A DNA stretch of 64,000 nucleotides from positions 682,001 through 746,000 of the forward strand of contig NZ_CP046155.1 in the NCBI RefSeq assembly GCF_016403105.1, written 5' to 3'. Positions 12,593 through 26,766 of this stretch are shown here, piece after piece. The stretch is from Leptolyngbya sp. BL0902. Its GTDB lineage: Bacteria > Cyanobacteriota > Cyanobacteriia > Phormidesmidales > Phormidesmidaceae. Each line of letters starts with the position of its first letter. Positions within the stretch are counted from its first letter, which is position 1. Under the pieces are notes generated by a model. It was not told the DNA's origin, did no database searches, and was given only the letters and a program-made list of their open reading frames with translations. A program made the position numbers and the translations under genes.

Positions 12593-12783
12593 GGCCAGAA
12601 CCAGATCGCCACCGCCTCCATTGGCCCAGGGATAAGGTTATTCAAGCTTTTCACCCCTATCAGGAAAATCAATCGTAAATCTGGTGGGATTTACCGAACA
12701 GAGATGTTATCGTTTTATTCATAGACTTTTGTCGATGCAAAAGTTTTCAACATTTATTAACTTCAATAAAAGGATTTACGGTG

Positions 12784-14493
12784 ATGGCGATGGGCATCAC
12801 GAATCGGATTAGCTTCCGCCACTGGCGGGGCGACTTGTTTGGGGGCGTCACCGCTGCGGTGATTGCGTTGCCGATGGCCCTGGCCTTTGGGGTGGCCTCT
12901 GGGGCTGGCCCTGCATCGGGTCTCTATGGGGCCGTGATTGTGGGCTTTTTTGCGGCGTTGTTTGGGGGCACGCCGACCCTGATTTCCGAGCCTACGGGGC
13001 CGATGACAGTGGTGTTCACTGCCGTTATCGCTCAACTGGTGGCGGCAAATCCCGAAAACGGCTTGGCGATGGCCTTTACGGTCGCCATGCTGGCGGGTTT
13101 CTTCCAGATTATTTTTGGAGTTCTCAAACTGGGGCGCTACGTCACCCTCATGCCCTACCCGGTGATTTCCGGCTTTATGTCGGGGATTGGGGTAATTCTG
13201 ATTATCCTGCAACTGGGGCCATTTTTGGGCCATGCCACCCCCAAGGGCGGCGTGGTCGGCACCCTCACCAGTTTGCCAGAACTGATCAGCACCCTGGATC
13301 CGGCAGAGGTGGCTCTGGGGGTGTTCTCCCTGGCGGTGCTGTTTTTAATGCCGAAGCAGATGAAGCGCTGGGTTCCCCCCCAGTTGCTGGTGCTGGTGGC
13401 TGGGACGATTCTGGCGCTCACCGTATTTGCGGGGTCTGACCTGCGGCTGATTGGGGAAATTCCCACTGGATTGCCTATCCTGCAACTGCCCATCTTCAGC
13501 GCTGACCAACTGCGGGTGATGCTGGTGGATGGCCTGGTGCTGGGGATGCTGGGCTGTATTGATGCCCTGCTGACGGCGATGATTGCCGACAGCATTACCC
13601 GTACCCAAAGCGACCCCAACAAGGAACTGATCGGCCAAGGGATCGGCAACCTGATGTCGGGTCTGTTTGGCGGTATGCCCGGTGCCGGGGCCACCATGGG
13701 TACGGTGGTCAACATCCAGGCTGGGGGGCGCACGGCGCTATCGGGGCTGATTCGGGCCGCGATTCTGCTGGTGGTCGTCCTCTGGGCGGCTCCGCTGACC
13801 AAGGTGATTCCCCTGGCGGTGCTGGCGGGGATTGCCGTGAAAGTTGGCTTTGACATTCTGGACTGGAGCTTCCTGAAACGGGCGCACCATGTGTCTTGGA
13901 AGGGCACCGCCATCATGTATGGGGTGATGTTCCTCACCGTGTTTGTAGACTTGATTGTGGCCGTGGGGGTGGGCGTGTTCATCGCCAATATGCTCACCAT
14001 CGACCGCCTCAGCAGCCTGCAATCGGAGGGTGTGCGCACCATCACCGACTTTGACGGCGACTTTCCCCTCAACGAGGAAGAAAACGCCCTCATGGATCGG
14101 GCCAAGGGTCGGATTCTGCTCTTCCACCTAGATGGCCCCATGATCTTCGGCGTGGCGCGGGCCATTTCCCAAGAGCACACCGCCATGGAAGACCACGATG
14201 TGCTGATTGTGGACTTGCAGGATGTGCCTCACCTGGGCGTCACCGCTGCCCTGGCGCTGGAAAACGCCATCCAGGACGCGGCAGATGCCGGACGCCAGGT
14301 GTTCCTCGTTGGTGCCAAGGGCAAAACCCTGAAGCGTCTGGAAAAACTGGGTGTGCTGCGGTTTGTTCCCGCTGAGCACCTGGTCCAAACTCGCGCCGAA
14401 GCCCTGAAGGCATCTCTCAAGGTGCTGGCGACCATCGACGGCATCGACTCCTCCAGCGACATGGCCGAATCGGAAGTCCCCCGCATGGTCTAG
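12784..14493 (+). CDS. bicA: Sodium-dependent bicarbonate transporter BicA (SulP family)
   Basis: A 569-residue SulP transporter with a C-terminal STAS domain. The N-terminus ITNRISFRHWRGDLFGG and the following ALPMALAFGVASGAG and TLISEPTGPMTVV closely follow Synechococcus BicA. The STAS part, about 430-550, includes the VLIVDLQDVPHLGVTAALAL core. BicA imports HCO3- with Na+ at low affinity and high flux. The start is uncertain: GTG 12781, ATG 12784 and ATG 12790 are all in frame behind an AAAGGA sequence (12768-12773). The Na+/H+ antiporter downstream would restore the sodium gradient. Confidence 0.93.
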   Translation: MAMGITNRISFRHWRGDLFGGVTAAVIALPMALAFGVASGAGPASGLYGAVIVGFFAALFGGTPTLISEPTGPMTVVFTAVIAQLVAANPENGLAMAFTVAMLAGFFQIIFGVLKLGRYVTLMPYPVISGFMSGIGVILIILQLGPFLGHATPKGGVVGTLTSLPELISTLDPAEVALGVFSLAVLFLMPKQMKRWVPPQLLVLVAGTILALTVFAGSDLRLIGEIPTGLPILQLPIFSADQLRVMLVDGLVLGMLGCIDALLTAMIADSITRTQSDPNKELIGQGIGNLMSGLFGGMPGAGATMGTVVNIQAGGRTALSGLIRAAILLVVVLWAAPLTKVIPLAVLAGIAVKVGFDILDWSFLKRAHHVSWKGTAIMYGVMFLTVFVDLIVAVGVGVFIANMLTIDRLSSLQSEGVRTITDFDGDFPLNEEENALMDRAKGRILLFHLDGPMIFGVARAISQEHTAMEDHDVLIVDLQDVPHLGVTAALALENAIQDAADAGRQVFLVGAKGKTLKRLEKLGVLRFVPAEHLVQTRAEALKASLKVLATIDGIDSSSDMAESEVPRMV

Positions 14494-14534
14494 GGTTCCC
14501 TCCCAACCTAGGGTGGGCACTAACCACCCTACAC

Positions 14535-14578
14535 TTCCGGCTTCCTTCTCCTGGGGGAAGAGGCGCTGGGGGTGAGCG
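14535..14578. repeat. Degenerate half of the REP-like repeat
   Basis: The stretch TTCCGGCTTCCTTCTCC, then GGGGGAAGAGGCGCTGGGGGTGAGCG, matches the right half of the REP-like element at 5136 and 28906, with several substitutions that weaken the stem. The left half is missing. It lies between bicA and the antiporter gene. Confidence 0.45.
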
Positions 14579-14624
14579 TCAGCCCGCCAATTTTCAACCA
14601 TTGTGTTAGAAGGTATCCACACTG

Positions 14625-16040
14625 ATGACTGAGATTCTATCCAGCCTATCCTGGCTATCCTGGGCCGACACGCCCCTGACCTCCACCCTGTCGCCCCTGC
14701 TGGCGGCGGCAACCGAAACCGACGCCGAAACCGGGCCGATTGTCCTGGCTGGGGTGTTGCTCAGCCTGGTGGTGATCTACATCGCCAGCAAACTCGGTGG
14801 CGAACTGTCTCGCCTGGTAGACCTGCCCCCGGTGTTAGGGGAACTGGTGGCCGGGGTGATTGTGGGAGCCTCCGCCCTACACCTGATTGTCTTCCCCGAA
14901 AGCGGGGCCGTTGCGGCAGATTCCCAATTGATGAGCCTGCTGCAATGGCTGGGTGGATTGTCCCCCGAAGCCGTCACCGAGGTGTTCAAAAGCCAGAGCG
15001 AAGTGGTCTCGGTGCTGGCAGAACTGGGCGTGATCATTCTGCTGTTTGAAATCGGCCTAGAATCCGACCTGCGCGAATTGCAAAAGGTGGGCTACCAGGC
15101 GGCAATTGTGGCCGTTGTGGGTGTGGTTGCTCCCTTTGCTCTGGGCACCGTTGGGCTGATGACTCTGTTCCATGTGCCCACCATTCCCGCCATTTTTGCG
15201 GGTGCTGCGTTGACCGCCACCAGCATCGGCATTACCTCCAAGGTGCTGTCGGAAATTGGCCAGCTCAAATCCGCCGAGGGCCAAATTATCGTCGGTGCAG
15301 CGGTGATTGACGACGTACTGGGCATCATCGTCCTAGCCGTGGTCGCCAGCTTGGCCAAAACGGGCGAAGTAGACGTGATGAACGTCATCTACCTGATCGC
15401 TAGCGCCACCGGGTTCCTGCTAGGCGCTATCTTCCTGGGCAAATTCTTCAACACCTCCTTCGTCGCCATTGCCGACAAACTGCAAACTCGCGGCAACCTG
15501 GTGATTCCGGCCCTCACCTTCGCCTTTTTGATGGCCTTCCTCGCCAACGTCATTCACCTAGAAGCCATTCTGGGGGCCTTCGCCGCTGGTCTGGTGCTGG
15601 ATGAAACCGACAAGCGCAAGGAGCTTGACCTCCAAATCATGCCCATCGCCGACATCCTAGTGCCGATCTTCTTCGTCACCGTGGGGGCCAAGGCCGACCT
15701 AGGCGTGCTCAACCCCGCCGTTCCTGCCAACCGCGAAGGTCTGGTCATTGCCCTCTTCCTGCTGGCCGTCGCCATCCTGGGCAAAGTGGTCACGGGCTGG
15801 ACCACCTTCGGCCAAGCTCAGCTCAACAAGCTGGCCATCGGCATCGGCATGGTGCCTCGCGGCGAGGTAGGCCTGGTGTTTGCGGGCATCGGCTCCGCCA
15901 GCGGCGTGCTGTCCAAACCCCTGGAAGCGGCCATCATCATCATGGTGATCGCCACCACCTTCCTGGCTCCGCCCTTCCTCCGCATTGCCTTCAAGGGCTC
16001 CGAGGAAGAGACCACGGCCAAAGCCGACCCGGCCTCCTAA
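14625..16040 (+). CDS. Na+/H+ antiporter, CPA2 family (NhaS3/NapA-like)
   Basis: A 471-residue membrane antiporter. The ion-binding aspartate pair of CPA2 proteins is at Asp229-Asp230 in GAAVIDDVLGIIVLA. Other family blocks are LPPVLGELVAGVIVG (68-82), LLFEIGLESDL and GMVPRGEVGLVFAGIG. It exchanges Na+ for H+ across the cytoplasmic or thylakoid membrane. The position directly after bicA is a known cyanobacterial arrangement and suggests it recycles Na+ entering with bicarbonate. The paralogue assignment (NhaS3) is inferred. Confidence 0.9.
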   Translation: MTEILSSLSWLSWADTPLTSTLSPLLAAATETDAETGPIVLAGVLLSLVVIYIASKLGGELSRLVDLPPVLGELVAGVIVGASALHLIVFPESGAVAADSQLMSLLQWLGGLSPEAVTEVFKSQSEVVSVLAELGVIILLFEIGLESDLRELQKVGYQAAIVAVVGVVAPFALGTVGLMTLFHVPTIPAIFAGAALTATSIGITSKVLSEIGQLKSAEGQIIVGAAVIDDVLGIIVLAVVASLAKTGEVDVMNVIYLIASATGFLLGAIFLGKFFNTSFVAIADKLQTRGNLVIPALTFAFLMAFLANVIHLEAILGAFAAGLVLDETDKRKELDLQIMPIADILVPIFFVTVGAKADLGVLNPAVPANREGLVIALFLLAVAILGKVVTGWTTFGQAQLNKLAIGIGMVPRGEVGLVFAGIGSASGVLSKPLEAAIIIMVIATTFLAPPFLRIAFKGSEEETTAKADPAS

Positions 16041-16219
16041 CCTAGCGCTAGGGCCAACCCGTAGGGGCGAGGTCTCCTCGCCCTGGGCATCCCCCCATCA
16101 TCCTTACCCTATCGTGGCTCACCTGGTTTCCTAAAACCCAACCCAAAGCGTCAACGCTGAGACGATGGCTCCTACGGTAGGGGCGCTAAACTGACACCAT
16201 TTCTCTTTGGGCGTTGGCG

Positions 16220-17293
16220 ATGCATCTGTTTCCATTTCGGCGATGGTCTGAGGTGACAGGGAACTTTCCAAAGGCCCTGTCAATGCTATTGATCTTGGGG
16301 GCAGGCATTCTCCTACTTAGCCTCAAAGTTGGTCTAAATCAGTGGTCATTGGTACCCCAAGCCTCTCTGAGTCAGCCTGCCGCCCTGCCCACCCAGATCG
16401 AGCGAGTAGAAACCGGAATTTTTGCCATCAGCGTTTACGATATTGACCTCACAAGCAACTCGTTTTATGCCGATTTCTATGTGTGGTTTAAGTGGAGAGG
16501 AGCCATTGATCCCATTACCTATCTAGAAGTCACCAACAGTATCAGCGATTGGTCAATGATGTCTGTCCCGGCCCACCCTGAACCAGAGCAATTACCCGAC
16601 GGGCGCTTTTACCAAATCTCACGGGTGGAGGGTCGTTTCCTCCAACCCTTTGACCTCAAACGCTATCCCCTCGATCAGTACAACCTCAGCATTTTCATGG
16701 AGAACTCGGCCTACACCACGGATCAACTGGTCTATGTCGCGGATAACGAGGCATCGGGCTATTCCCAGTTTTTGACCATTCCCGGTTGGTCAATTATGGG
16801 ATCTGCCATCGATAGTCTGGTGCGAACCTACGACACCAACTTTGGCGATCCGCGTCTGTCGAGTCAGTCGGAACATTCGGTGCTGTGCTACTCCCTCAAC
16901 ATTGCCCGCCCCTGGAGCTTTTTTGTTTGGAAACTGCTGTTGCCGCTGTTAATTGTGCTGGCCTCAAGCTGTGCCGCTTTGTTGCTGGCTCCCCAGCACA
17001 TTGATTCGCGGGTAGCGCTTCCGGTAACGGCTCTGTTGACGGCGGTTTTTCTGCAAGAGACCTACGCAGACGCCCTACCAGACCTAGGCTATCTAGTGCT
17101 GATGGATAAAATCTACGTGATTGCCTACATCCTAATTTTTGCCTCCATTGTAGAGGTGATCATCACCGCCTACTGGATGGATAAAAACGATGCCACCTGG
17201 ACAAAGCGAGTGATGTGGGCAGACTGGGTTCTGCTAGGTTTACAAATCGTTGTGATGACCACTGGATTAACCTGGTTAGTGACACAATCTTAA
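16220..17293 (+). CDS. Pentameric ligand-gated ion channel homologue (Cys-loop superfamily)
   Basis: A 357-residue protein with the full prokaryotic pLGIC layout: a leader helix (about 20-40), an extracellular beta domain (55-230) with the hallmark RYPLDQYNLSIFMEN (148-162), pre-M1 ARPWSFFVW, M1 (236-256), pore-lining M2 IDSRVALPVTALLTAVFLQE (261-280), an M2-M3 loop with Pro, M3 with YVIAYILIFASIVEVIITAYW, and M4 (334-355). The eukaryotic disulfide loop is absent, as in GLIC and ELIC. GLIC is proton-gated; the ligand here is unknown. ATG 16220 is chosen over TTG 16214. Its neighbours are a bicarbonate/sodium/proton transport group. Confidence 0.85.
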   Translation: MHLFPFRRWSEVTGNFPKALSMLLILGAGILLLSLKVGLNQWSLVPQASLSQPAALPTQIERVETGIFAISVYDIDLTSNSFYADFYVWFKWRGAIDPITYLEVTNSISDWSMMSVPAHPEPEQLPDGRFYQISRVEGRFLQPFDLKRYPLDQYNLSIFMENSAYTTDQLVYVADNEASGYSQFLTIPGWSIMGSAIDSLVRTYDTNFGDPRLSSQSEHSVLCYSLNIARPWSFFVWKLLLPLLIVLASSCAALLLAPQHIDSRVALPVTALLTAVFLQETYADALPDLGYLVLMDKIYVIAYILIFASIVEVIITAYWMDKNDATWTKRVMWADWVLLGLQIVVMTTGLTWLVTQS

Positions 17294-17390
17294 AAGCATC
17301 TGAAGCATGATGAGCGGCCATGGCAGATTCCAATTGATGCAATATTCACAATAACCAAAGGGCTTAGGTGTCCTGTCTCTAGATCGGGGC

Positions 17391-17414
17391 AATGCCATCT
17401 ACGGGGATGGCATT
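17391..17414 (+). promoter_or_regulatory. Perfect 9-bp hairpin ahead of the Mrp-like operon
   Basis: AATGCCATC and GATGGCATT form a perfect stem around a six-base loop, 75 bases before the mrpC start. No T-run follows, so a simple intrinsic terminator is unlikely. It could end the channel transcript, stabilise the leader or act as an operator. The mrpC gene itself has a GGGGAGG ribosome-binding sequence at 17472-17478. Confidence 0.4.
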
Positions 17415-17489
17415 CTGGCAAGATAAAGTTAATCTAGAAAGTTATTCAATTGTCATTGAAGAAAGTTATTTGGGGAGGCAAAGAAAAGA

Positions 17490-17846
17490 ATGGAAATCGG
17501 GGGAAGTACGATACTCTATGCCTGTGTCTATGCCACCATTTTGATGGGCTTTTTCGGCATCATCTTTAAAGAACACTTGGTCATGAAAATCATCGCCATG
17601 GATGTGATGAGTACCGGAGTGGTCGCCCTATTTGTGTTGGTGGCAGCAAGAACTGGGGTACGTACTCCCATTTTGACCGAGGGCGCAAGTTCTAGCTATG
17701 CCGATCCGGTGCCCCAGGCGGTAATTTTGACCGCCATTGTGATTGGTTTCTCCATCCAAGCCTTGATGCTGGTGGGGGTGATGAAACTGGCGAGGGATAA
17801 CCCCACGCTAGAAGCTCGCATTATCGAAAAGGGGTATGAGCCATGA
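17490..17846 (+). CDS. mrpC: Mrp-type cation/proton antiporter subunit C (NuoK-like)
   Basis: A 118-residue, three-helix membrane protein of the NuoK/MnhC family. The MGFFGIIFKEHLVMKIIAMD and VPQAVILTAIVIGFSIQAL segments are typical, including the Glu within the second helix region. It works within a multi-subunit Na+(K+)/H+ antiporter. Its stop overlaps the start of the next gene (ATGA at 17843), a sign of coupled translation. It opens the C-D-D-E-F operon. Confidence 0.85.
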   Translation: MEIGGSTILYACVYATILMGFFGIIFKEHLVMKIIAMDVMSTGVVALFVLVAARTGVRTPILTEGASSSYADPVPQAVILTAIVIGFSIQALMLVGVMKLARDNPTLEARIIEKGYEP

Positions 17847-19330
17847 CTCCCCTAGCAACACCCCCCTTGACGATGACGCCCTTTACCATCCTGTGGATTA
17901 CGCTGCCCTTTGCGGTGGGTTTCAGTATTTACCTGCTGCCCCAGGTAGATCGCATTCTCACCCTGGCGGTAACGCTGGTCTCGGTGGCCTACGCGAGTGC
18001 GCTGGTTTTTCAGCCTGAAGCCCTCACCATCGATCTGCTAGATAGTTTTGGCGTATCGCTGCTGGCAGATAAACTGAGCGCCTGGTTCATTTTGACCAAT
18101 GCCCTCGTTACCGCCGCCATTGTGCTGCACGGTTGGGATAGCCCCAAAACCGAGTTTTTCTACACCCAGTTAATTATTCTTCACGGCAGCGTCAATGCCA
18201 CGTTTATTTGTGCAGATTTAATCAGCCTCTACGTGGCCCTAGAAATGGTTGGGATCACCACGTTTTTGCTGATTAGTTATCCCCGTACCGATAAAACCCT
18301 GTGGGTGGGGCTGCGCTATTTATTTGTCAGCAATGTGGCCATGCTGTTTTATCTGATGGGGACGGTGTTGGTCTATCGCACCCATCAGTCCTTTGCCTTT
18401 GAGGGGCTGCGGGGTGCCCCCATCGAAGCGCCTGCTCTCATTTTGATGGCCCTATTGGTGAAGGGTGGCATTTTTGTCTCTGGGCTGTGGTTGCCGCAGA
18501 CCAACGTCGCCGCCGATAGTGCGGTATCCGCCATGATGTCGGGGGCGGTAGAAAAAGCGGGGGTGTTTCCGCTACTCCGTATCGCCCTGACCCTGGAGGA
18601 GTTGGAACCTGTGATCCAAACCTTTGGTATGGGGACAGCCCTGCTAGGCGTGACCTATGCCTTGGTCTCCACTGATGCCAAGCGGGTGCTGGCCTGTAGC
18701 ACGCTGTCCCAACTGGGCTGGCTGCTGGTGGCCCCAGCGGTAGCAGGGTTCTATGCCCTGGCCCATGGGTTGGCCAAGGCAACGATGTTTCTCACCGTGG
18801 GGCAGTTGCCCCAGCGAGACCTGGCCCAACTGCGCCAGCGCCCCATCCCCACCGCCCTGTGGATTCCCCTCACGGTGGGGAGTTTGTCCATTTCGGGGGC
18901 TCCCTTTCTGGCGGGGTTTGGGGCCAAGGTGCTGACCCTTGATGCCCTACTGCCTTGGCAGGCCACGGTGATGAATACTGCTGCCTTGGGCACAGCGGCC
19001 ACCTACGCCAAATTTATCTTTTTGCCCCATCGGCCCACCCTGGTGATGGCTGGGGACAATGCCCCTAAAAAGGGATTCTGGCTGGCGATCTGGCTGTTGT
19101 TGTGCAGCGTCATTATCGCCAGTGCCGGATACCGGGATGCCTATACCTGGGCCAACGCCCTGAAGGTTCTGGCCTTTTTAGGGGGGGGCTGGCTGGTCTA
19201 TGGGCTGCTGCGTCGTCATCTGACGATGCCCGTGCCTCGGGCTGCTGAGGAGTTTGAACCGTTAATTGGAGGAATGAGCGTCATGTTAGTGGTGCTGTTT
19301 TGGATGGTGTGGTCATGGTCGGTGGCCTAG
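17843..19330 (+). CDS. mrpD: Mrp-type antiporter subunit D (NuoN/NdhD-like), copy 1
   Basis: A 495-residue polytopic membrane protein of the proton-translocating NADH dehydrogenase/Mrp family. The conserved block ATLISLYVALEMVGITTFLL-like (FICADLISLYVALEMVGI), the lysine-bearing LLVKGGIFVSGLWLP and KRVLACSTLSQLGWLL are all visible. These Glu and Lys residues carry protons in the family. Comparable genes are called NdhD5/NdhD6 in Synechocystis. A second start lies ten codons downstream. The next gene is a clear paralogue, so the operon carries a duplicated D subunit. Confidence 0.88.
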   Translation: MTPLATPPLTMTPFTILWITLPFAVGFSIYLLPQVDRILTLAVTLVSVAYASALVFQPEALTIDLLDSFGVSLLADKLSAWFILTNALVTAAIVLHGWDSPKTEFFYTQLIILHGSVNATFICADLISLYVALEMVGITTFLLISYPRTDKTLWVGLRYLFVSNVAMLFYLMGTVLVYRTHQSFAFEGLRGAPIEAPALILMALLVKGGIFVSGLWLPQTNVAADSAVSAMMSGAVEKAGVFPLLRIALTLEELEPVIQTFGMGTALLGVTYALVSTDAKRVLACSTLSQLGWLLVAPAVAGFYALAHGLAKATMFLTVGQLPQRDLAQLRQRPIPTALWIPLTVGSLSISGAPFLAGFGAKVLTLDALLPWQATVMNTAALGTAATYAKFIFLPHRPTLVMAGDNAPKKGFWLAIWLLLCSVIIASAGYRDAYTWANALKVLAFLGGGWLVYGLLRRHLTMPVPRAAEEFEPLIGGMSVMLVVLFWMVWSWSVA

Positions 19331-19403
19331 GGCAAAAACGGGGTAGCCCTATCACCCCAAGGAAAAGCGCGTCCCCAATCTGGCTTGGCCAAGGGGGGTG
19401 GCG

Positions 19404-20858
19404 ATGACTCTATTCACCGTTGTGTGGATGGTTCTACCGTTCTTGGTAGGCTTCAGTATCTACCTGCTGCCCCGGCTAGATCGGCCCTTGGCCTTGGGTG
19501 TCACCCTGGTGTCTTTGGCCTACGGTATCAGCCTATTTTTTCAGCCCGGTGGTTTTGATATCCGCTTGATGGACAGCTTTGGGGTGACGCTACTCGCGGA
19601 CAACCTCAGCGCCTGGTTCATCCTCACCAACACCCTGGTGACGGCGGCGGTCGTGATCTACTGCTGGCCTACGGCTAAATCGGCCTTCTTTTATACCCAG
19701 GCCATCATTCTCCACGGCAGCATCAACGCCACTTTTATCTGTGCCGACTTCATTAGCCTCTACGTGGCCCTTGAGGTCGTTGGTATTGCGGCCTTTTTGC
19801 TGATTGCCTACCCCCGCAGCAACAAAACCCTGTGGGTAGCCTTGCGCTATCTGTTCATCAGCAACACCGCCATGCTGTTCTACCTGATCGGGGCGATTTT
19901 GGTCTACCAAACCCACCAGTCCTTTGCCTTTACTGGGCTGCGCGGTGCCCCCGTCGAGGCTGTAACACTGATTATCGGTGGGTTGCTCACCAAGGGCGGT
20001 ATCTTCGTATCTGGGCTTTGGCTTCCCCTCACCCACTCCGAGGCAGAAAGCCCGGTGTCGGCCCTGCTGTCTGGGGTCGTGGTAAAGGCGGGGGTGTTTC
20101 CCCTGGTGCGCTTTGCCCTAATGATGGAGGAACTCACCCCGCTGATGGCTGTGCTGGGGGTAGCCTCTGCCCTGCTAGGGGTGATCTACGCCCTCTGCCA
20201 AACCGATGCCAAGCGGGTGTTGGCCTGTAGCACCCTATCCCAACTGGGCTGGATTTTGGCCGTGCCCCCGGCGGCGGGGCTCTTTGCCCTGGCCCATGGG
20301 CTGGCTAAGGCAACCCTGTTCCTCACCGTGGGCAACTTGCCCAGCCGCGACCTACCCCGCCTGCGCCAACAGCCGATTCAGACGAGCCTGTGGGTGCCCC
20401 TCACCCTGGCCAGTCTCTCCATTTCTGGCTTTCCAGGGCTGGTGGGCTTTGGCTCCAAACTGGCAACCCTCAAAGCGGCCCTGCCCTGGCAACCGCCGCT
20501 GCTCAACCTCGCGGCAGTGGGTACGGCGGTGCTCTATGCCCAATTTATTTTTCTACCCCATCAGCGAGACGACAAGGACAACTGGCTGTCGGCCAAGCCA
20601 GGATTGTGGTGGGCATTGGGGCTTCTGATTGGGGCGATGGTCGTGGCCAATGGAGCCTATGTTGGAGCCTACACCCTAGCAAACCTAATCAAGGTGCTGG
20701 TCATTCTTGGGGTGGGTTGGCTGCTTCAACAATGGCTGTTGGTGCGGATGTCGGTAGGTTTTCCCCGTGGCCTAGAAGCCTTTGAGCACCTAATTGGAGG
20801 CATGAGTTTGGCCTTAGTTGCACTGTTTTGGATGGTGGGATCATGGTTGGCAATTTAA
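19404..20858 (+). CDS. mrpD: Mrp-type antiporter subunit D (NuoN/NdhD-like), copy 2
   Basis: A 484-residue paralogue of the preceding gene, alignable end to end: FLVGFSIYLLPRLDRPL versus FAVGFSIYLLPQVDRIL, and KRVLACSTLSQLGWIL in both. The Glu of FISLYVALEVVGI and the Lys of LLTKGGIFVSGLWLP are kept, so both copies look functional. ATG 19404 was preferred to GTG 19398; a GGGGGG-rich ribosome-binding stretch precedes it. The pair arose by tandem duplication and has diverged considerably, so the two copies probably occupy different positions in the complex, as MrpA and MrpD do elsewhere (inference). Confidence 0.88.
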   Translation: MTLFTVVWMVLPFLVGFSIYLLPRLDRPLALGVTLVSLAYGISLFFQPGGFDIRLMDSFGVTLLADNLSAWFILTNTLVTAAVVIYCWPTAKSAFFYTQAIILHGSINATFICADFISLYVALEVVGIAAFLLIAYPRSNKTLWVALRYLFISNTAMLFYLIGAILVYQTHQSFAFTGLRGAPVEAVTLIIGGLLTKGGIFVSGLWLPLTHSEAESPVSALLSGVVVKAGVFPLVRFALMMEELTPLMAVLGVASALLGVIYALCQTDAKRVLACSTLSQLGWILAVPPAAGLFALAHGLAKATLFLTVGNLPSRDLPRLRQQPIQTSLWVPLTLASLSISGFPGLVGFGSKLATLKAALPWQPPLLNLAAVGTAVLYAQFIFLPHQRDDKDNWLSAKPGLWWALGLLIGAMVVANGAYVGAYTLANLIKVLVILGVGWLLQQWLLVRMSVGFPRGLEAFEHLIGGMSLALVALFWMVGSWLAI

Positions 20859-21232
20859 ATATTCTGCTGCGGCTGACAATCTGGTTTTTGCTGACTGCCG
20901 ATTTTAGTATTGCGAATATTTTGATTGGCCTTGCTGTAGCTTTCTTGCTGCCCAGGGGCATTCCTCGCCCCAGCAATATTAAGCAGTGGTTGCACGTCCT
21001 GGGGGAGGTGATAGTGGCCATTCCCCAGGCTTACAAAGAAGCCATTGAAATCATGATCTTTCCCCACAACCATGAAGTAGTGACGGTAGATCGGGCGAAA
21101 CGACAGCAAACCCCTAGTCTGTTATTTTTAGATATTTTTCTGATCACCTTCACCCCCAAAACCATCGTCCAGCGCTACCGCGAACAGGGCTGGTACGAAG
21201 TCCATCGTGTTACCCGGAGGCCCAACCCATGA
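20843..21232 (+). CDS. mrpE: Mrp-type antiporter subunit E
   Basis: A 129-residue MnhE-type membrane protein. The sequence LNILLRLTIWFLLTADFSIANILIG begins the membrane region. LGEVIVAIPQAYKEAIEIMI and the tail SLLFLDIFLITFTPKTIVQRY follow family order. ATG 20843 was chosen; it lies 16 bases inside the end of the upstream D gene, and the frame extends to a TTG at 20828. The stop codon overlaps the next start (ATGA). It is thought to be needed for assembly of the antiporter complex. Confidence 0.82.
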   Translation: MVGNLNILLRLTIWFLLTADFSIANILIGLAVAFLLPRGIPRPSNIKQWLHVLGEVIVAIPQAYKEAIEIMIFPHNHEVVTVDRAKRQQTPSLLFLDIFLITFTPKTIVQRYREQGWYEVHRVTRRPNP

Positions 21233-21510
21233 CCGTACAGCCCATGGTCTTGCTGCTCATTGCGATGATTGGCGCTCTGCTGATCCCGATGATCGAAGCC
21301 TTCCTCGATGACGACATTTGGCAGCGAATGCTGGCCTTTGCTAGCATTGCCACTAAAACCTCCGTCATGATTTTGGTGGTGTCCGTCCTGCGCGACGACT
21401 GGATGATCGGCGTGGTGGGTATCCTCATCCTCAGCGTGGGCAATGCGGCCCTAATGCTGTTAGCCCAGGTACTCAAGCGCCTGAGTGCGGTCATGGATGG
21501 GGAGGGCTGA
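21229..21510 (+). CDS. mrpF: Mrp-type antiporter subunit F-like small membrane protein
   Basis: A 93-residue, three-helix protein placed where MrpF belongs, with its ATG overlapping the mrpE stop. Helices lie at about 5-24, 34-52 and 57-80. Family resemblance is weaker than for C, D and E, so the assignment rests partly on order. No subunit G, A or B gene follows; the next gene is a radical SAM protein on the same strand after about 100 bases. Confidence 0.65.
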   Translation: MTVQPMVLLLIAMIGALLIPMIEAFLDDDIWQRMLAFASIATKTSVMILVVSVLRDDWMIGVVGILILSVGNAALMLLAQVLKRLSAVMDGEG

Positions 21511-21610
21511 GGGCAAGCTATCCCAAACGCAAAGACTTATTGAAAAAATCCCACGTCTGGGGAGGGACTACCTACAATAGGCCACAATCCTTTGGTGGTA
21601 GCAAGTAGGT

Positions 21611-22780
21611 ATGAGATCCTGGCTGAATCAACTGCGGCTCCGCTGGTTTTTGGCCACAAAATCCCTGGGCTACGGCACAGATTTTGTGGAAGTTCTGTAC
21701 CGTATTTACCTCAACCACAGCAAAATCATTCACTTTCGGGATGGCTATCCGGTTTACTCGCTTTCTACCCCAGCGCTGTTTAGTAAGCCCGCCGCCCACT
21801 TCATCGCCCGCACCCTATACCGAGGCATCCAAAACCGCAACCTGCCCAATTTAATGAGCCTTGCGGTGAACGACACCTGCAATGCCCACTGTGGACACTG
21901 TAGCTTTTACGATGGCGTAGACGATCCCCACCGCCAGCCCATGACCCTGTCCCAGTTTGCCCAGGCCATTGCGGCGGCTCAAGACTTGGGGGTTTCGGTG
22001 ATTAATATTGTCGGCGGTGAGCCCCTACTGCGGCCCGACCTAGCGGGGATTATCCGATCCGTAGACAAGGATCGCTCCACCGTACTACTCTTTACCAACG
22101 GCTGGCACCTGGCCGACCGGGCGGCAGAATTGCGGCGGGCTGGACTAGATAGCGTCTACGTCAGCCTGGATGCGGCGGACGCCCAGCGCCATGATATTCT
22201 CCGGCAAACCCCTGGATTATTTGAACGGGCCGTATCGGGGCTGAAGGTGGCCCAAAAGTTGGGTTTTTCCATCGGTATTTCCGCCACCCTAACCCCAGAA
22301 GCCTACCAATCTGGCGAACTCAAACGCCTGGTAGAACTGGGTAAATCCCTCGGCGTCCATGAAGTTCTTGTCTTCGATGCCCTGCCCAGCGGACGACTTC
22401 AGCACCGAGAAGACCTGATCGACAACGGCGACTGGGTGGAGGCCATGATCCAATCGGCGGTGCCCTACAACCAGGATGATCGCTATCCCGGCGTCGTTTT
22501 TTCGGCCTATATCAGCAGCCATCGGAGTGTTGGGTGTTCCTGCGGCACTAGCTATTTCTACTTATCACCCTACGGCGATGTGATGTCCTGCGACTTTAAC
22601 CACGCTATCTTTGGCAACGTGCTAGAAGAACCACTCTGGAAGGTGTGGCAACGATTGAGCAGCAACCCCGATTTTGCCCAGGCCAAGTGGGGCGGATGTA
22701 AGGTAAAAGACTCCGACTTTCTACAGAAAGAAACGGTACAGATTGGCAGCAGAGTGCAGCAGGTCTGGCCTGATGATTAA
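21611..22780 (+). CDS. Radical SAM enzyme with C-terminal cysteine-rich (SPASM-like) region
   Basis: A 389-residue radical SAM enzyme. The 4Fe-4S/SAM motif CNAHCGHC is at Cys90, Cys94 and Cys97, preceded by MSLAVNDT. IVGGEPLLRPDL is the GGE segment that binds SAM. The C-terminal third has GCSCGTSYFYLSPYGDVMSCDFN and a later GGCK, giving extra cysteines for an auxiliary cluster. The N-terminal 80 residues may dock on the membrane. It heads a co-directional group with an internally duplicated membrane protein, a small membrane protein and a UbiA prenyltransferase. The reaction is unknown; an isoprenoid or lipid substrate is inferred from context. Confidence 0.82.
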   Translation: MRSWLNQLRLRWFLATKSLGYGTDFVEVLYRIYLNHSKIIHFRDGYPVYSLSTPALFSKPAAHFIARTLYRGIQNRNLPNLMSLAVNDTCNAHCGHCSFYDGVDDPHRQPMTLSQFAQAIAAAQDLGVSVINIVGGEPLLRPDLAGIIRSVDKDRSTVLLFTNGWHLADRAAELRRAGLDSVYVSLDAADAQRHDILRQTPGLFERAVSGLKVAQKLGFSIGISATLTPEAYQSGELKRLVELGKSLGVHEVLVFDALPSGRLQHREDLIDNGDWVEAMIQSAVPYNQDDRYPGVVFSAYISSHRSVGCSCGTSYFYLSPYGDVMSCDFNHAIFGNVLEEPLWKVWQRLSSNPDFAQAKWGGCKVKDSDFLQKETVQIGSRVQQVWPDD

Positions 22781-22877
22781 CCGCTGGGTTAGACGGGCAT
22801 TAGAGCAATCTTGCAGAACCCCATAGACTGACGCAGCGTAGCAAGGTTTAGTGTATGAACCAGGATGGGCCATCAAA

Positions 22878-23900
22878 ATGTTAATCAACTCTCTCTGGTT
22901 ATTGGGCCATTGTGCCTTTGAAAGGACAGCAACCCCAGCGACCTTGATTTTTCAGGCCGTTGTGTTTCTAACGGTAGGATTTGGGCTGTGGTTTTTGAGT
23001 AAGGTTCAAACCCAGATTCTAGCCCGCTTCGGCATTATGGCCGTGGGTGTCCTCATTTTTGAACTGTTTACTGCTCCCATGTGGCGAAATGCTCACCTGG
23101 GAGAATGGGCCTACCTATACCATGACGTCAGCTGGATTCTGACCATCGGCTGGAGTATTTTGTTTCTCGGCGTCGTCGAAATTGTCGATAAGCTCCTCCC
23201 TAGCTGGCGAGAATGGAAACGGTTTTTGACATACTTAGGGGTGCTAATTGTTCTGACCTTACCCCTAGAAATTTGGGTGGTGAACATCGATATTCGCAGC
23301 TATGCACCCGAAGTATTAGACTCCCTGAGTGGGCTCACCATGGCTAGTGTTCCCATCGAGCTAATTTACTATGTCCCTGTCTTTGCTGGATTGGTCATTG
23401 GCTTTTACAAATACTGGACGTTTGTCCTAGAAGATAAACTGTTGATTCCCCTCAAGAAAATTCGCTGGGCGAGGGGTATTGCCATGACAGCCCTCGCTAT
23501 CTTCATGTTTGAGGTGATGGTGGAACCTATGGTGGTGAATGCAGGCTTTCCGAGCTGGTCTTTTATTTTCCACGACATTAGCATCATTATGACCGGAATT
23601 TGGGTGGGCGTAATTGCGATAACAGCCCTGTTTGTCTATCGCTTTTTTCCCCATTATCCCATTGCCACTCGATACGCCCTTGCGCTCTCTATTTGTACGG
23701 CCATAGCACTGCCTATTGAATACTATCTGTTCGTTAACGATATTCGAGTTTATGGGCCTAGTGCCATCGCTAATTTTTCAGGATTCACCATCCCAATTAT
23801 CAATGCCCCCATCGAAATTGCCTTTGCCATTCCCTGCTATATGGCTTTGGTGATTGCCCTAGTGCGCTACTGGGAAATTGCCCTCGATAATCGCCTGTGA
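22878..23900 (+). CDS. Internally duplicated polytopic membrane protein of unknown function
   Basis: A 340-residue, about ten-helix protein in two homologous halves offset by about 150 residues. Both carry E-x(4)-PM-x2-N, HD(V/I)S, LP(L/I)E, DIR-x-Y-x-P, PIE and YW-x(3-4)-L(E/D) (numbered from ATG 22878: Glu62/212, His82-Asp83/232-233, Glu131/281, Asp138/288, Glu161/313). Acidic and His residues buried at matched sites suggest an active site or pore. The PIE and DIR-Y blocks faintly resemble lycopene-cyclase-type membrane domains, which also occur in pairs; this is only a suggestion. ATG 22878 is preferred to GTG 22851. Function unknown. Confidence 0.7.
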   Translation: MLINSLWLLGHCAFERTATPATLIFQAVVFLTVGFGLWFLSKVQTQILARFGIMAVGVLIFELFTAPMWRNAHLGEWAYLYHDVSWILTIGWSILFLGVVEIVDKLLPSWREWKRFLTYLGVLIVLTLPLEIWVVNIDIRSYAPEVLDSLSGLTMASVPIELIYYVPVFAGLVIGFYKYWTFVLEDKLLIPLKKIRWARGIAMTALAIFMFEVMVEPMVVNAGFPSWSFIFHDISIIMTGIWVGVIAITALFVYRFFPHYPIATRYALALSICTAIALPIEYYLFVNDIRVYGPSAIANFSGFTIPIINAPIEIAFAIPCYMALVIALVRYWEIALDNRL

Positions 23901-23907
23901 GGATTCT

Positions 23908-24318
23908 ATGACCTTTCCTAAAATTGCTCTGAATACGCTGATAGGTAGTCTTGTGATAGCTGTGGGCTTAGCGATGACTCTCGGCCCTAGTACCGCTGGC
24001 ATTTTATTCCTCTACTCGATTATTTGCACCCTAGGTATTGGGGCGGTTTTTTGGGCGGCCCTAGCCTTTATCGTTGGCTGGTTAATGACGACCCTTGTGG
24101 CGGCAGTTCGGGGAGAACATGCCCCCACCCAGCCTACCTCCAGCCCTCAATCCGATGCCCTCACAGCCTACGTCCGCCGCGCCCTACAAGCGGGGGCCAA
24201 CGATGACCAACTTCTGCGCCGCCTAGAACGCCAGGGCTGGACAGAGGACGAAATTATCCAGGCGATCCAGCGTGTTCAGGAGATCCCCGATGCGCCCAAT
24301 GCTTCAGGGGCGGCTTAA
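23908..24318 (+). CDS. Small membrane protein with C-terminal helical tail
   Basis: A 136-residue protein starting seven bases after the duplicated membrane protein gene, so almost certainly co-transcribed. Two membrane helices (about 8-28 and 35-61) are followed by a Pro/Ser linker. A C-terminal helical domain contains LLRRLERQGWTEDEIIQAIQRV, which looks like a UBA- or SAP-like three-helix bundle. I do not recognise the family. It could be an adaptor that holds a soluble partner at the membrane (inference). Confidence 0.65.
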   Translation: MTFPKIALNTLIGSLVIAVGLAMTLGPSTAGILFLYSIICTLGIGAVFWAALAFIVGWLMTTLVAAVRGEHAPTQPTSSPQSDALTAYVRRALQAGANDDQLLRRLERQGWTEDEIIQAIQRVQEIPDAPNASGAA

Positions 24319-24394
24319 AGACTGTCCTAGGGATGCGGCTATGGTAGACGAATCCATTTACCTTGGGGCTGTATGTCGTCAATCTTGCTGAACT

Positions 24395-25477
24395 ATGCCG
24401 CCTGATCCCCAGGAAACGAACGCTTTTCCACCACAGCAGCCCAGGGATAGATTCCCTACGCCTACCCCTAGCAATGTAGGTGAACCTAGGGCGAATCTAG
24501 GTCTACTTAAACGGTTTTGGATCTACCAAAAAGAACGCTTTCCCCTGGTTAAGCATGGTTTCTTGATAGCTATTTTTAGCGGGTCGGCTGTGGGCTATGG
24601 GGCCAGACTTACCAATACTTCCCCAACCTTTGCTTCGGCGCTTGTTGCTTTTTTAAGCACCTTTGCTTTTTTCTGGCAGATGCGAGTTGCCGATGAATTT
24701 AAGGATTTGACTGACGATGCCCAATATCGCCCCTATCGTCCGGTGCCGCGAGGCCTGGTGAGTTTGCGGGAGTTGGCTATTGCAGGAGTTATCAGTGCAG
24801 TTCTTCAGGCCAGTTTAGCGCTGTGGTTAGCGCCTGCTTTGCTAGGGTTTATGGTGTGCGTTTGGGCCTACTTTGGTCTGATGTGCAAAGAATTTTGGGT
24901 GCGAGACTGGCTGAAAACCCGCCCCGTTTTCTACGTCCTCAGCCACATGGTCATTGTGCCAATGATTGGCGGCTATGCCATAGCAGTTCAAACCGTTCCT
25001 GCGACAGGAATTGCCCTGAATTGGAACCTGATTCCTTTTCTGCTCACCTGTTTTTGCAATGGTTTAGTGATTGAAATAGGCCGCAAAACTCGCCTCCCTG
25101 CCGGAGAAGAAATCGGCGTCGAAACCTATAGTGCTCTGTGGGGCTTGGCGATGGCGGTGCGGCTGTGGCTAGGGGCTGTTGTCTTGACCGCGATCTCTTC
25201 GCTGTGGGCCGCTGGACAGATTCAGACCCTAGGGGTGGTGGTTCCCCTCTTGATGGCACTGTTGGGATGGGTGGGGTTTAAGGCATGGCCGTGGCTAGGG
25301 GCATCTGCCGCTGGCTTGGCCATGCAACCGTCCTCGCCCTCGTCTGCGACACCGGAGCCGGAGGCAACTGCCAGAACGCCCGCAGCCTATGACCTGCTAG
25401 ATGGGCCAACAGCCCTGTGGACGCTGGGAGTCTACCTAGGGCTGGGCTGGCTACCGTGGTTCTGGGGAGGGGGGTAG
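24395..25477 (+). CDS. UbiA-family prenyltransferase
   Basis: A 360-residue integral membrane prenyltransferase. The first aspartate motif is RVADEFKDLTDDAQYRPYRP (Asp100, Asp104), typical of a UbiA subgroup with YRPYRPVPRGLVS. The second aspartate motif is not canonical: EIGRKTRLPAGEE keeps Glu227 where Asp-x3-Asp is usual. Members attach isoprenoid chains to aromatic or lipid acceptors; some form terpenoid lipids or extend carotenoids. The 35 N-terminal residues are disordered. It closes the radical SAM/membrane protein group on the same strand. Confidence 0.8.
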   Translation: MPPDPQETNAFPPQQPRDRFPTPTPSNVGEPRANLGLLKRFWIYQKERFPLVKHGFLIAIFSGSAVGYGARLTNTSPTFASALVAFLSTFAFFWQMRVADEFKDLTDDAQYRPYRPVPRGLVSLRELAIAGVISAVLQASLALWLAPALLGFMVCVWAYFGLMCKEFWVRDWLKTRPVFYVLSHMVIVPMIGGYAIAVQTVPATGIALNWNLIPFLLTCFCNGLVIEIGRKTRLPAGEEIGVETYSALWGLAMAVRLWLGAVVLTAISSLWAAGQIQTLGVVVPLLMALLGWVGFKAWPWLGASAAGLAMQPSSPSSATPEPEATARTPAAYDLLDGPTALWTLGVYLGLGWLPWFWGGG

Positions 25478-25506
25478 TCGCTGCTGTTACTACGGTGTGG
25501 AGAGTA

Positions 25507-26766
25507 TCAATCCTCTGATGTATCCTCTAGCGCTGGTTCAGCGGGCGACCGTTGGGGCGCTGGGGACTGGGGAGCCTCGTCTTCAGCGCGTTTGAGTAGC
25601 GTGTCGGTGGCGATGCAGTCATCGTCGCTGTAGAGAACCCTGACCACGGCGCGGTAGAGGGTGCCGGGGGCGAGGGGGGTTTCGGAATTGGCTGCTAGGG
25701 TCTGGAGATTTTGGGCCGCGGCCTGGTTGAGGAAGGGATAGCCCGTACTCTTGAGAACGGTGGTGGAAATGTTGAGGGTGTCAGCGTCTTCTCCGGGCAG
25801 CAGCACAAAGCCTAGCATCCCGTCGCTGGGCTCAGGTTGAAGGCAGATACGCAGGTCGTAGGGCACCTCCAGGGAAAAGGTTTCCTCGGCCAGGGTGGGA
25901 GGTTCGCCAAGGACTTCAGCCACGGTGCGTCGCCATGCGGTGAGGGCCGTTTCGGCTTCGGTGGTTGTGGTGAGGGTAGGACTATACTCCACCCTGGCAA
26001 TGAGGTCGCGAGCAGACTGCGACGGGCCTAGGTCGGCGGCTTCCTGGCGGGGGCTCCGGGAGGCTGCATCACCCGAACTAGCCGCCACTTCGCCATTTCT
26101 GGGTCGCGATGGTTCCTCAGCCCTGGGCGCTGGGTTCTCCCGGCCATTCTGGCTGGTGGGGGTAGAGGCGGCGGTTTCCTCCGAGGGGCTGGCCTCCTCG
26201 TCCTCTGCTAGATCGGTTGGGATGGGAAGGTTGGGCCGATTTCCGGGCGTATTGGGAATCACGATGGGACTGCGACTTCCCAAACGGGACGGGAAAGGGC
26301 TGACCGTGAGGGGCGCACCTAGCCCAGAGGAGGGAATGCGGGGCAGGGAACTGAGCCCACCGGGCAGGGGCGGCAGCGGAGTAGCGCGGGAGGTGACGGG
26401 CGGAAATAGATCGTTGAGATCACGGCCAGCGGAAAAGTCGCCCGATGGGAAATCTCCCGGCAGCCCATCTCCCGGCTGAAAGGAATAGGCGGGGCTGTTG
26501 AAATCGGGAAGACGGCTTTGCTCTTCAGCGGAGAGCTCGATGATGGGCACCCGGCGCTCGGCCTCGCGGTTGCCCGGTGCCCCCATCGCCATGCTCTGCA
26601 AATTAGCAAAGGATGGCCCCACCGCAAACAGCGCCCCATGGAAACCCACCGAGGCGATGGCGGCGATCCACTGAGGTTGACGCAGGACAGCAGGAATCCC
26701 CTTGAGCGCTGCGGGGTTAGGTTTGAGCGCCGCTAGGTTGATGGGTAGCCCTTTCAACAGTTTCAT
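25507..26766 (-). CDS. TonB-like protein with single membrane anchor and Pro-rich linker
   Basis: A 419-residue protein. One membrane segment at about 41-58 follows a cytoplasmic stretch that repeats NLAALKPNPAALKGIPAVL-type units. A Pro/Ser/Glu-rich linker runs to about 270. The C-terminal domain includes VLKSTGYPFLNQAAAQNLQ, which resembles the TonB C-terminal fold signature (SSGYPxLDxAA). A TonB-type role, carrying inner-membrane energy to outer-membrane receptors, is plausible, but no ExbB/ExbD or receptor gene is near. ATG 26766 is preferred to the longer frame at 26790. Confidence 0.55.
   Translation of the reverse strand: MKLLKGLPINLAALKPNPAALKGIPAVLRQPQWIAAIASVGFHGALFAVGPSFANLQSMAMGAPGNREAERRVPIIELSAEEQSRLPDFNSPAYSFQPGDGLPGDFPSGDFSAGRDLNDLFPPVTSRATPLPPLPGGLSSLPRIPSSGLGAPLTVSPFPSRLGSRSPIVIPNTPGNRPNLPIPTDLAEDEEASPSEETAASTPTSQNGRENPAPRAEEPSRPRNGEVAASSGDAASRSPRQEAADLGPSQSARDLIARVEYSPTLTTTTEAETALTAWRRTVAEVLGEPPTLAEETFSLEVPYDLRICLQPEPSDGMLGFVLLPGEDADTLNISTTVLKSTGYPFLNQAAAQNLQTLAANSETPLAPGTLYRAVVRVLYSDDDCIATDTLLKRAEDEAPQSPAPQRSPAEPALEDTSED

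What the first reader, a model, noticed from the sequence alone, without database searches (positions are those of the whole stretch)
21611..25477. Unexplained four-gene membrane/radical SAM/UbiA module
Four co-directional genes encode a radical SAM enzyme with extra cysteines, a duplicated polytopic protein, a small two-helix protein with a helical tail (7-base gap to the previous gene) and a UbiA prenyltransferase with a non-canonical second aspartate motif. I know of no named pathway with this set. The set suggests synthesis or modification of an isoprenoid or membrane lipid, and the duplicated protein faintly recalls paired lycopene-cyclase domains that sit beside UbiA elongases in C50 carotenoid clusters. 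The gaps to the Mrp-like operon upstream and the TonB-like gene downstream suggest a separate unit.
Basis: partly seen in the sequence, partly recalled or inferred. Interest (0 to 1): 0.65.

Follow-up and report, generated by a model that had tools for sequence, protein, structure and literature searches.

The report
Split, undescribed lipid-pathway gene set
Four neighbouring cyanobacterial genes that looked unexplained are a conserved set that is inherited together with a second, distant pair of genes, and together they look like an undescribed pathway that builds and modifies an isoprenoid-type lipid.

Summary
The four genes are real. Their order (rSAM, duplicated membrane protein DUP, SMALL, UbiA) recurs in 7 of the 9 genomes I found with DUP, in four cyanobacterial lineages; all 9 hold all four genes, even where scattered.

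In 6 of the 9 the next gene is a rifampin-phosphotransferase-like dikinase, and a DUF3419 (BtaA-like) gene belongs to the set. In the window's genome these two lie together at a distant locus. In its genus UbiA was found only in the 3 of 26 genomes with DUP, DUF3419 only in two of those three.

UbiA belongs to a wider operon (UbiA, dikinase, DUF3419, GNAT, acyl-AMP ligase) in other phylum members and one proteobacterial plasmid; rSAM, DUP and SMALL are an add-on. All 28 UbiAs aligned have E-x-x-R-K at the second Asp motif.

DUP is a tandem duplication. Its similarity to CrtYc/CrtYd lycopene-cyclase domains passes a domain test but fails others. Best reading: membrane half of an undescribed isoprenoid aminolipid pathway. 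Product unknown.

The parts
21611..22780 (+). Radical SAM protein with SPASM-like C-terminal domain (389 aa), here called rSAM
   Evidence: Pfam PF04055 3.4e-23, PF13186 7.3e-06; homologs 65-71% identical beside DUP in the other lineages
22851..23900 (+). DUP: duplicated polytopic protein, 340-349 aa (GTG at 22851 or, judging by homologs, ATG at 22878); possible remote similarity to CrtYc/CrtYd lycopene-cyclase domains at residues 119-191 and 272-317
   Evidence: internal repeat Z 16.3; domain HMM with shuffles and controls; against; model pLDDT 71.6
23908..24318 (+). SMALL: two hydrophobic segments (by eye) and a tail; the listed ORF begins at a TTG at 23878 that overlaps DUP
   Evidence: sequence; homologs after DUP in all 9 DUP-bearing genomes
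24395..25477 (+). UbiA-superfamily intramembrane prenyltransferase with first motif DEFKDxxxD and second motif EIGRK in place of DxxxD
   Evidence: PF01040 below cut-off; top structure and only PDB sequence match is digeranylgeranylglyceryl phosphate synthase 6m31; motif table

Best explanation
The four genes encode the membrane part of a larger, undescribed biosynthetic pathway for an isoprenoid-type aminolipid. Shown by sequence: four genes conserved together, plus a rifampin-phosphotransferase-like dikinase and a BtaA-like (DUF3419) protein that lie downstream in other cyanobacteria and at a second locus (about 4.207-4.211 Mb of contig 1) in this genome; and a wider core operon of UbiA, dikinase, DUF3419, often GNAT and acyl-AMP ligase, sometimes a CTP_transf_1-like protein, without rSAM, DUP or SMALL. 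Inferred: UbiA moves a polyprenyl (geranylgeranyl or phytyl) chain onto a polar acceptor in the membrane; the dikinase phosphorylates a hydroxyl of the hydrophobic intermediate; DUF3419 adds a 3-amino-3-carboxypropyl (homoserine-type) head from SAM, as BtaA does on diacylglycerol; the acyl-AMP ligase and GNAT, where present, acylate the amine. In the cyanobacterial variant DUP, with invariant acids E140, E170, E290 and E322, cyclises or isomerises the prenyl chain by protonation, rSAM does one radical step on the same chain, and SMALL is an accessory subunit. The roles of DUP, rSAM and SMALL are the least certain steps.
For: Gene order rSAM-DUP-SMALL-UbiA in 7 of 9 DUP-bearing genomes, dikinase directly after UbiA in 6 of 9. 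Retention of rSAM, DUP, SMALL and UbiA in 9 of 9, including FACHB-1136, where rSAM, DUP-SMALL, UbiA and dikinase-DUF3419 lie on four contigs. Genus profile: DUP in 3 of 26; UbiA (E <= 1e-15) in the same 3 and 0 of the other 23; DUF3419 in 2 of those 3 and 0 of the other 23; the third is an 87% complete MAG, and several of the 23 are only 83-87% complete. Of 20 loci fetched for the 21 other UbiA-bearing genomes, 18 have the dikinase beside UbiA (one a fragment), the other two have UbiA within about 300 bases of a contig end; 15 have DUF3419 (one a fragment). In G080 acyl-AMP ligase and UbiA are one 870-residue protein. A plasmid of Roseinatronobacter sp. S2 has consecutive genes UbiA, PEP/pyruvate-binding, DUF3419, two hypotheticals, AMP-binding. 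Lipid-type neighbours in the 20 loci: HMG-CoA reductase in 4, diacylglycerol-kinase domain in 4, MMPL in 4 (one by similarity only). UbiA is nearest to archaeal ether-lipid prenyltransferases among solved structures. Dikinase with RPH-like domain order and the His motif in 26 of 27 loci with it, the exception cut by a contig end. DUP domain tests.
Against: No product, substrate or biochemistry is known for these proteins. DUP as a CrtYcd relative: a full-length CrtYcd HMM ranks full-length DUP near the bottom of the 375 listed ORFs (331-374; a fragment at 35); profile-profile comparison is not significant (hhalign E 0.14; local test Z 0.8; global test Z 2.2 with 5 of 200 shuffles as high); Pfam Lycopene_cyc matches 1 of 8 members, below cut-off; the second acid of the cyclase PxEE motif is missing. 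Fold neighbours of the DUP model are at noise level and no cyclase was among them. Aminocarboxypropyl transfer is extrapolated from BtaA. In this genome GNAT and acyl-AMP ligase were not seen beside dikinase-DUF3419 and were not searched genome-wide (cap reached).
Confidence: 0.42

Rival explanations
1. DUP is not an enzyme but an Insig-like or other intramembrane lipid-binding or scaffold protein that holds UbiA and rSAM together.
For: Foldseek's top two for the model are MvINS 4xu6/4xu4 (E 0.23, 0.34); VIA Z 7.2, rmsd 3.2 over 131 residues of half 1.
Against: That Z is within what unrelated helical models give, by the tool's own note, and a heme A synthase ties with it (Z 7.4, rmsd 15.1); domain tests point to CrtYc/CrtYd in both halves; paired Glu residues are invariant in 8 of 8.
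Confidence: 0.28
2. A C50-carotenoid cluster: UbiA is a lycopene elongase and DUP a CrtYe/CrtYf-type cyclase.
For: UbiA plus a CrtY-like protein resembles CrtEb with CrtYef, which together lead to cyclic C50 carotenoids (passages of PMC2889829; that CrtEb is a UbiA-superfamily protein is recalled).
Against: The core operon carries this UbiA without DUP; I recognised no phytoene synthase or desaturase by eye in the ORF lists of the DUP loci; rSAM, dikinase and DUF3419 have no place in that pathway; UbiA second motif differs from the genome's own UbiA paralogs.
Confidence: 0.08
3. A specialised meroterpenoid-like metabolite rather than a membrane lipid: UbiA prenylates an amino-acid-like or aromatic acceptor and the rest tailor and activate it.
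For: Patchy distribution: strong DUP matches in 2 of 386 phylum genomes and 3 of 26 in the genus; acyl-AMP ligase, GNAT and a carboxylic-acid-reductase-like neighbour in Calothrix.
Against: BtaA-like, diacylglycerol-kinase, HMG-CoA reductase and MMPL neighbours of the core lean to lipids; I recognised no large NRPS or PKS gene by eye in the loci read.
Confidence: 0.2
4. Chance neighbours, or accessory genes of the adjacent Mrp-like antiporter operon.
For: Same strand, 100 bases downstream; the Mrp-like operon is also upstream of rSAM in BSH.14.
Against: In Calothrix, MO_188.B28 and G256 the set sits in other surroundings; co-occurrence in the genus.
Confidence: 0.02

Closest known systems
CrtYc/CrtYd (CrtYcd, CrtYef) type lycopene cyclases, Pfam PF18916
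   Same: Two repeats with a PxE-led helix; the best-domain score of the window DUP is reached by 0 and 1 of 400 local shuffles in two runs, with hits in both halves
   Different: More helices per repeat, no second acid of PxEE, below the Pfam cut-off, bottom ranks with a full-length CrtYcd HMM, no carotenoid genes recognised beside it
Digeranylgeranylglyceryl phosphate synthase and other UbiA-superfamily prenyltransferases
   Same: Fold and first Asp motif; 6m31 is the only PDB sequence match at E <= 1 and the top Foldseek match
   Different: Second motif E-x-x-R-K in 28 of 28 aligned; distinct operon partners
Rifampin phosphotransferase / PigC / PRK06241-type dikinases (for the partner gene outside the window)
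   Same: ATP-grasp, large middle region, C-terminal His domain; matches to 5fbs and NF004881
   Different: Below every curated cut-off listed for the two proteins scanned; substrate unknown
BtaA (betaine-lipid synthesis, DUF3419; partner gene outside the window)
   Same: Pfam PF11899 over cut-off
   Different: BtaB was not looked for; acceptor unknown; sits with UbiA and dikinase

Membership tests
CrtYc/CrtYd-type lycopene cyclase (for DUP) | Reaches the curated cut-off of PF18916 | tested here: not met
   1 of 8 members matches at 8.7e-04, 20.3 bits against 27; window protein no match. Caveat: fused CrtYcd-like proteins of Calothrix also fall below this cut-off
CrtYc/CrtYd-type lycopene cyclase (for DUP) | Two repeated domains similar in sequence to CrtYc/CrtYd | tested here: inconclusive
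   For: in a domain-HMM ranking of 591 ORFs ranks 7-16, right after six CrtYcd, are DUP copies or fragments, though of 19 DUP entries others rank 20-29, 47, 62 and 315; 0-8 of 400 shuffles reach the best-domain score in 8 of 8 members; 12 control membrane proteins give 50 or more of 400. Against: full-length HMM ranks
CrtYc/CrtYd-type lycopene cyclase (for DUP) | P-x-E-(E/D) motif in each repeat (as a family hallmark recalled; present twice in each of the 7 CrtYcd sequences used) | tested here: not met
   DUP keeps PIE at 168-170 and PIE at 320-322 but not the second acid
UbiA prenyltransferase superfamily | UbiA fold and first Asp-rich motif | tested here: met
   the window protein alone is below the Pfam cut-off, the NIES-4105 homolog above it
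UbiA prenyltransferase superfamily | Canonical second Asp-rich motif | tested here: not met
   E-x-x-R-K in 28 of 28 aligned; absent from the 5 paralogs of this genome
Radical SAM/SPASM | CxxxCxxC and C-terminal auxiliary-cluster cysteines | tested here: met
   PF04055 and PF13186 over cut-off; C90/94/97 and C309/311/327/363 invariant in 5; the number of auxiliary clusters is not testable here
C50 carotenoid (CrtEb/CrtYef) cluster | Carotenoid genes as neighbours | tested here: inconclusive
   none recognised by eye in the ORF lists of the DUP loci; no family search for them was run
BtaA (for the unlinked DUF3419 gene) | SAM-dependent 3-amino-3-carboxypropyl transfer to a lipid hydroxyl | not testable with these tools
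   family match only; the BtaA reaction was read in passages of PMC10685587

The most novel reading that the evidence does not exclude
A class of bacterial lipids not yet described: isoprenoid aminolipids made by a UbiA with a basic (E-x-x-R-K) second motif, an RPH-like lipid dikinase and a BtaA-like head-group enzyme, with a cyanobacterial branch that adds a radical SAM step and a tandem CrtY-like intramembrane cyclase acting outside carotenoid synthesis.
Probability: 0.28. Interest if true: 0.82.

Novelty: new variant of a known kind. Interest (0 to 1): 0.6.

Why it matters
If right, it names a bacterial lipid or terpenoid pathway whose genes are annotated piecemeal (UbiA family, PEP/pyruvate-binding, DUF3419, hypothetical, AMP-binding on the plasmid record), gives a context to a membrane family with no Pfam entry, and offers a direct test of whether CrtY-type proteins act outside carotenoid synthesis.

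Tried and rejected
Fold search of the DUP model: no Foldseek match with E <= 0.001; seven chains at Z 5 or more and none at 8; no lycopene cyclase was listed, which says nothing either way. Profile comparisons of DUP with CrtYcd that were not significant: hhalign, a local profile test that aligned 4 columns, a global test (the known CrtY repeat gave Z 5.7 there as a positive control, DUP against UbiA -0.9, UbiA against CrtYcd 0.7). PDB sequence search with DUP: one meaningless match. Plasmids: no DUP. PDB searches with DUF3419, GNAT and the CTP_transf_1-like protein: nothing useful. Rfam: nothing in 21000-26000 at gathering scores. Promoter/terminator scan: no more than in shuffles. C50-carotenoid and Mrp-accessory readings set aside. 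UbiA tree: Calothrix-group and Nodosilinea-group UbiAs are clades (100/100 each); deeper nodes unresolved, and one origin of the DUP-bearing group is neither shown nor excluded (3 changes).

Literature: searches listed no paper that I recognised as describing this set. I saw listings and abstract starts, plus passages of PMC12419801, PMC9235831, PMC10685587 and PMC2889829; no paper was read whole. The library holds open-licence papers only.
Full report
What is there. The four ORFs are at the stated coordinates: rSAM 21611-22780, DUP 22851-23900, SMALL (ATG) 23908-24318, UbiA 24395-25477, all on the + strand. rSAM is a radical SAM/SPASM protein; the 25 best of its 72 NCBIfam matches (heme b synthase, MoaA, NirJ2 and others) all lie below their cut-offs. 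DUP has no Pfam or NCBIfam family at E <= 1. UbiA is a divergent UbiA-superfamily protein, the weakest of six UbiA matches in this genome.

Conservation. A scan of genome contigs with DUP, which reaches close relatives only, found seven loci: Phormidium sp. FACHB-1136, Nodosilinea sp. BSH.14, Leptolyngbyaceae MO_188.B28, three Calothrix strains and Dulcicalothrix desertica PCC 7102. A DUP profile over 386 genomes of the phylum gave two strong matches, the window's own genome and G256, and one weak 40-residue match; the rSAM profile at E <= 1e-60 gave the same two. Seven have rSAM-DUP-SMALL-UbiA in this order: the window, MO_188.B28, the four Calothrix/Dulcicalothrix and G256. In BSH.14 rSAM is on another contig, still after the Mrp-like operon and 241 bases from that contig's end, while DUP-SMALL-UbiA are together. 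In FACHB-1136 rSAM, DUP-SMALL and UbiA are on three contigs. So the genes can be scattered, yet all four are present in 9 of 9.

The missing half. In MO_188.B28, the four Calothrix/Dulcicalothrix and G256 the gene after UbiA is a dikinase with a PPDK_N ATP-grasp domain and a C-terminal PEP-utilizer His domain (Pfam run on three of these six). A DUF3419 gene follows it in G256 and, after one short reverse ORF, in NIES-4105; it lies about 6-6.5 kb from the dikinase in PCC 7716 and PCC 7103, with GNAT and acyl-AMP ligase, and on another contig with GNAT in MO_188.B28. In the window's genome dikinase (979 aa) and DUF3419 are adjacent at about 4.207-4.211 Mb of contig 1 (4.31 Mb), while the window module is at about 0.704-0.707 Mb. 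FACHB-1136 has the same pair on a fourth contig. DUF3419 was found in 7 of the 8 genomes searched; the miss is BSH.14, an 87% complete MAG (G021), which also lacks a close dikinase (best 8e-21). Dulcicalothrix was not searched for it. In the genus, DUP is in 3 of 26 genomes, UbiA (E <= 1e-15) in the same three and none of the other 23, DUF3419 in two of the three and none of the other 23. Some of the 23 are only 83-87% complete. If genomes were independent, an exact match of 3 in 26 would have probability 1 in 2600 (my arithmetic); they are related, so this is a guide only.

The wider core. UbiA (E <= 1e-20) is in 22 of 386 phylum genomes. I fetched loci for 20 of the 21 other than the window's (G256 included, G082 not). 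Eighteen have the dikinase beside UbiA, one of them as a fragment at a contig end; in the other two UbiA lies within about 300 bases of a contig end on its downstream side. Fifteen have DUF3419 (one a fragment), ten GNAT, eleven an acyl-AMP ligase, five a CTP_transf_1-like protein; that last family name rests on one member at 24.6 bits against 24, another gave no Pfam match. A distant match to the same protein (27%, 6e-07) lies 7.5 kb upstream of rSAM in MO_188.B28. In the 19 loci other than G256's no rSAM, DUP or SMALL was found. In G080 acyl-AMP ligase and UbiA form one 870-residue protein (AMP-binding at 33-389, UbiA at 586-846 below cut-off), a fusion that links the two steps. A plasmid of the alphaproteobacterium Roseinatronobacter sp. 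S2 has consecutive genes annotated UbiA, PEP/pyruvate-binding, DUF3419, two hypothetical proteins, AMP-binding; by similarity the two are the CTP_transf_1-like protein (1e-21; no Pfam match) and a GNAT-like protein (4.5e-33; Pfam 0.097). It was the only plasmid record with such a UbiA. Other neighbours in the 20 loci: HMG-CoA reductase in four, once with a diacylglycerol-kinase domain in the same ORF; diacylglycerol-kinase domain in four; MMPL in three by Pfam and a fourth by similarity.

Enzyme readings. The dikinase has the order ATP-grasp, large middle region, C-terminal His domain. Its closest solved structures are 5fbs and relatives, labelled PEP synthase in the PDB (that they are rifampin phosphotransferase is recalled), and its best NCBIfam models include PRK06241, PigC, RedH and RPH, all below cut-off. 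The His motif is present in 26 of 27 loci with a dikinase hit, two of them duplicates; the exception (G070) is cut by a contig end. RPH's three-domain layout was seen in an abstract (PMC4844700). This suggests phosphorylation or phospho-activation of a bulky hydrophobic substrate (inference). DUF3419 is treated as the BtaA family: BtaA makes diacylglycerol-O-homoserine from SAM, and a gene annotated DUF3419 was identified as a putative betaine-lipid synthase there (passages of PMC10685587). UbiA: the model's top PDB matches are digeranylgeranylglyceryl phosphate synthase and archaeal UbiA homologs, and the former is the only PDB sequence match (E 7e-04). In all 28 members aligned the second motif reads E-x-x-R-K; the five UbiA paralogs of this genome lack it. 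Basic residues there could bind a phosphate directly (inference).

DUP. Half 1 and half 2 align over 129 columns, Z 16.3. For the comparison with lycopene cyclases I used seven CrtYcd-like proteins (two of the Calothrix group, two from other phylum genomes, two Thermus, one Deinococcus), assigned by annotation or by PF18916, which three of the four phylum proteins reach only below its cut-off. A domain HMM from their 14 repeats was run against 591 ORFs of the fetched loci and window: after six CrtYcd proteins, ranks 7-16 are all DUP copies or fragments (E 0.05 to 0.47); of the 19 DUP entries the others rank 20-23, 26, 29, 47, 62 and 315. With shuffles inside 15-residue windows, 0, 0, 1, 0, 3, 7, 8 and 2 of 400 reached the best-domain score in the 8 members; on the whole-sequence score 1, 2, 3, 36, 4, 14, 1 and 185 of 400. 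Twelve other membrane proteins gave 50 or more of 400 on the best domain and 16 or more on the whole score. In the window protein the hits fall at 119-191 and 272-317, equivalent places of the two halves. Against: the full-length CrtYcd HMM puts the DUP entries at ranks 331-374 of 375 listed, one fragment at 35; hhalign E 0.14, though in the same register; global profile test Z 2.2; Pfam Lycopene_cyc 1 of 8. In the phylum scan with that family 9 of 11 matching genomes lie at E 0.0047-0.0087, so the genome-wide 5.5e-04 of the MO_188.B28 DUP is only about ten times better than noise. I put remote homology at about even odds and a cyclase-like function as plausible, not shown. The DUP model has about ten long helices; Foldseek's first match is MvINS (E 0.23), and the VIA ranks (heme A synthase 7.4 at rmsd 15.1, MvINS 7.2 at rmsd 3.2) are within noise.

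Mechanism and limits. Shown: gene content, order, co-occurrence, families, motifs. Inferred: that the product is an isoprenoid aminolipid, the order of steps, and the roles of rSAM, DUP and SMALL. The window's own genome was not searched for GNAT or acyl-AMP ligase. The UbiA tree does not resolve whether the rSAM-DUP-SMALL add-on arose once.

Novelty. No described pathway with this set was recognised in the search listings, in open-licence papers only. Each enzyme except DUP and SMALL belongs to a known family, so I rate it a new variant of a known kind.

Noticed in passing
window 16214-17293 (+): A protein with a weak match to the neurotransmitter-gated ion-channel transmembrane region (PF02932, 1.1e-04, below cut-off) sits between a Na+/H+ exchanger and the Mrp-like operon: a possible prokaryotic pentameric channel gene in an ion-antiporter cluster.
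   Followed up: partly
window 12781-21510 (+): SulP permease, Na+/H+ exchanger, channel-like gene and Mrp-like subunits in one co-directional run; the same run precedes rSAM in Nodosilinea sp. BSH.14 (L107).
   Followed up: partly
L052 3816-5093, L064 11663-12937, L053 1-1917, L065 6332-7870: HMG-CoA reductase genes near the core UbiA in four genomes of the cyanobacterial phylum (one, G063, of the window's class), although cyanobacteria are generally held to use the MEP route (recalled); one copy shares an ORF with a diacylglycerol-kinase domain.
   Followed up: partly
L069 7527-10142 (-): Natural fusion of an acyl-AMP ligase and a UbiA-superfamily domain in one 870-residue protein of genome G080.
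   Followed up: yes
L023 1090-1863, L025 1009-1824, L117 1414-2175: Fused CrtYcd-like proteins in Calothrix-group genomes and another cyanobacterium, below the Pfam PF18916 cut-off; passages of PMC2889829 name this type from Actinobacteria, Archaea and Bacteroidetes, with homologs in fungi.
   Followed up: no
L108 10603-13695, L109 8169-11252: Carboxylic-acid-reductase-like protein (AMP-binding, carrier domain, thioester reductase) on the opposite strand between the dikinase and the DUF3419-GNAT-ligase group in Calothrix (the family searches were run on the PCC 7716 copy).
   Followed up: no
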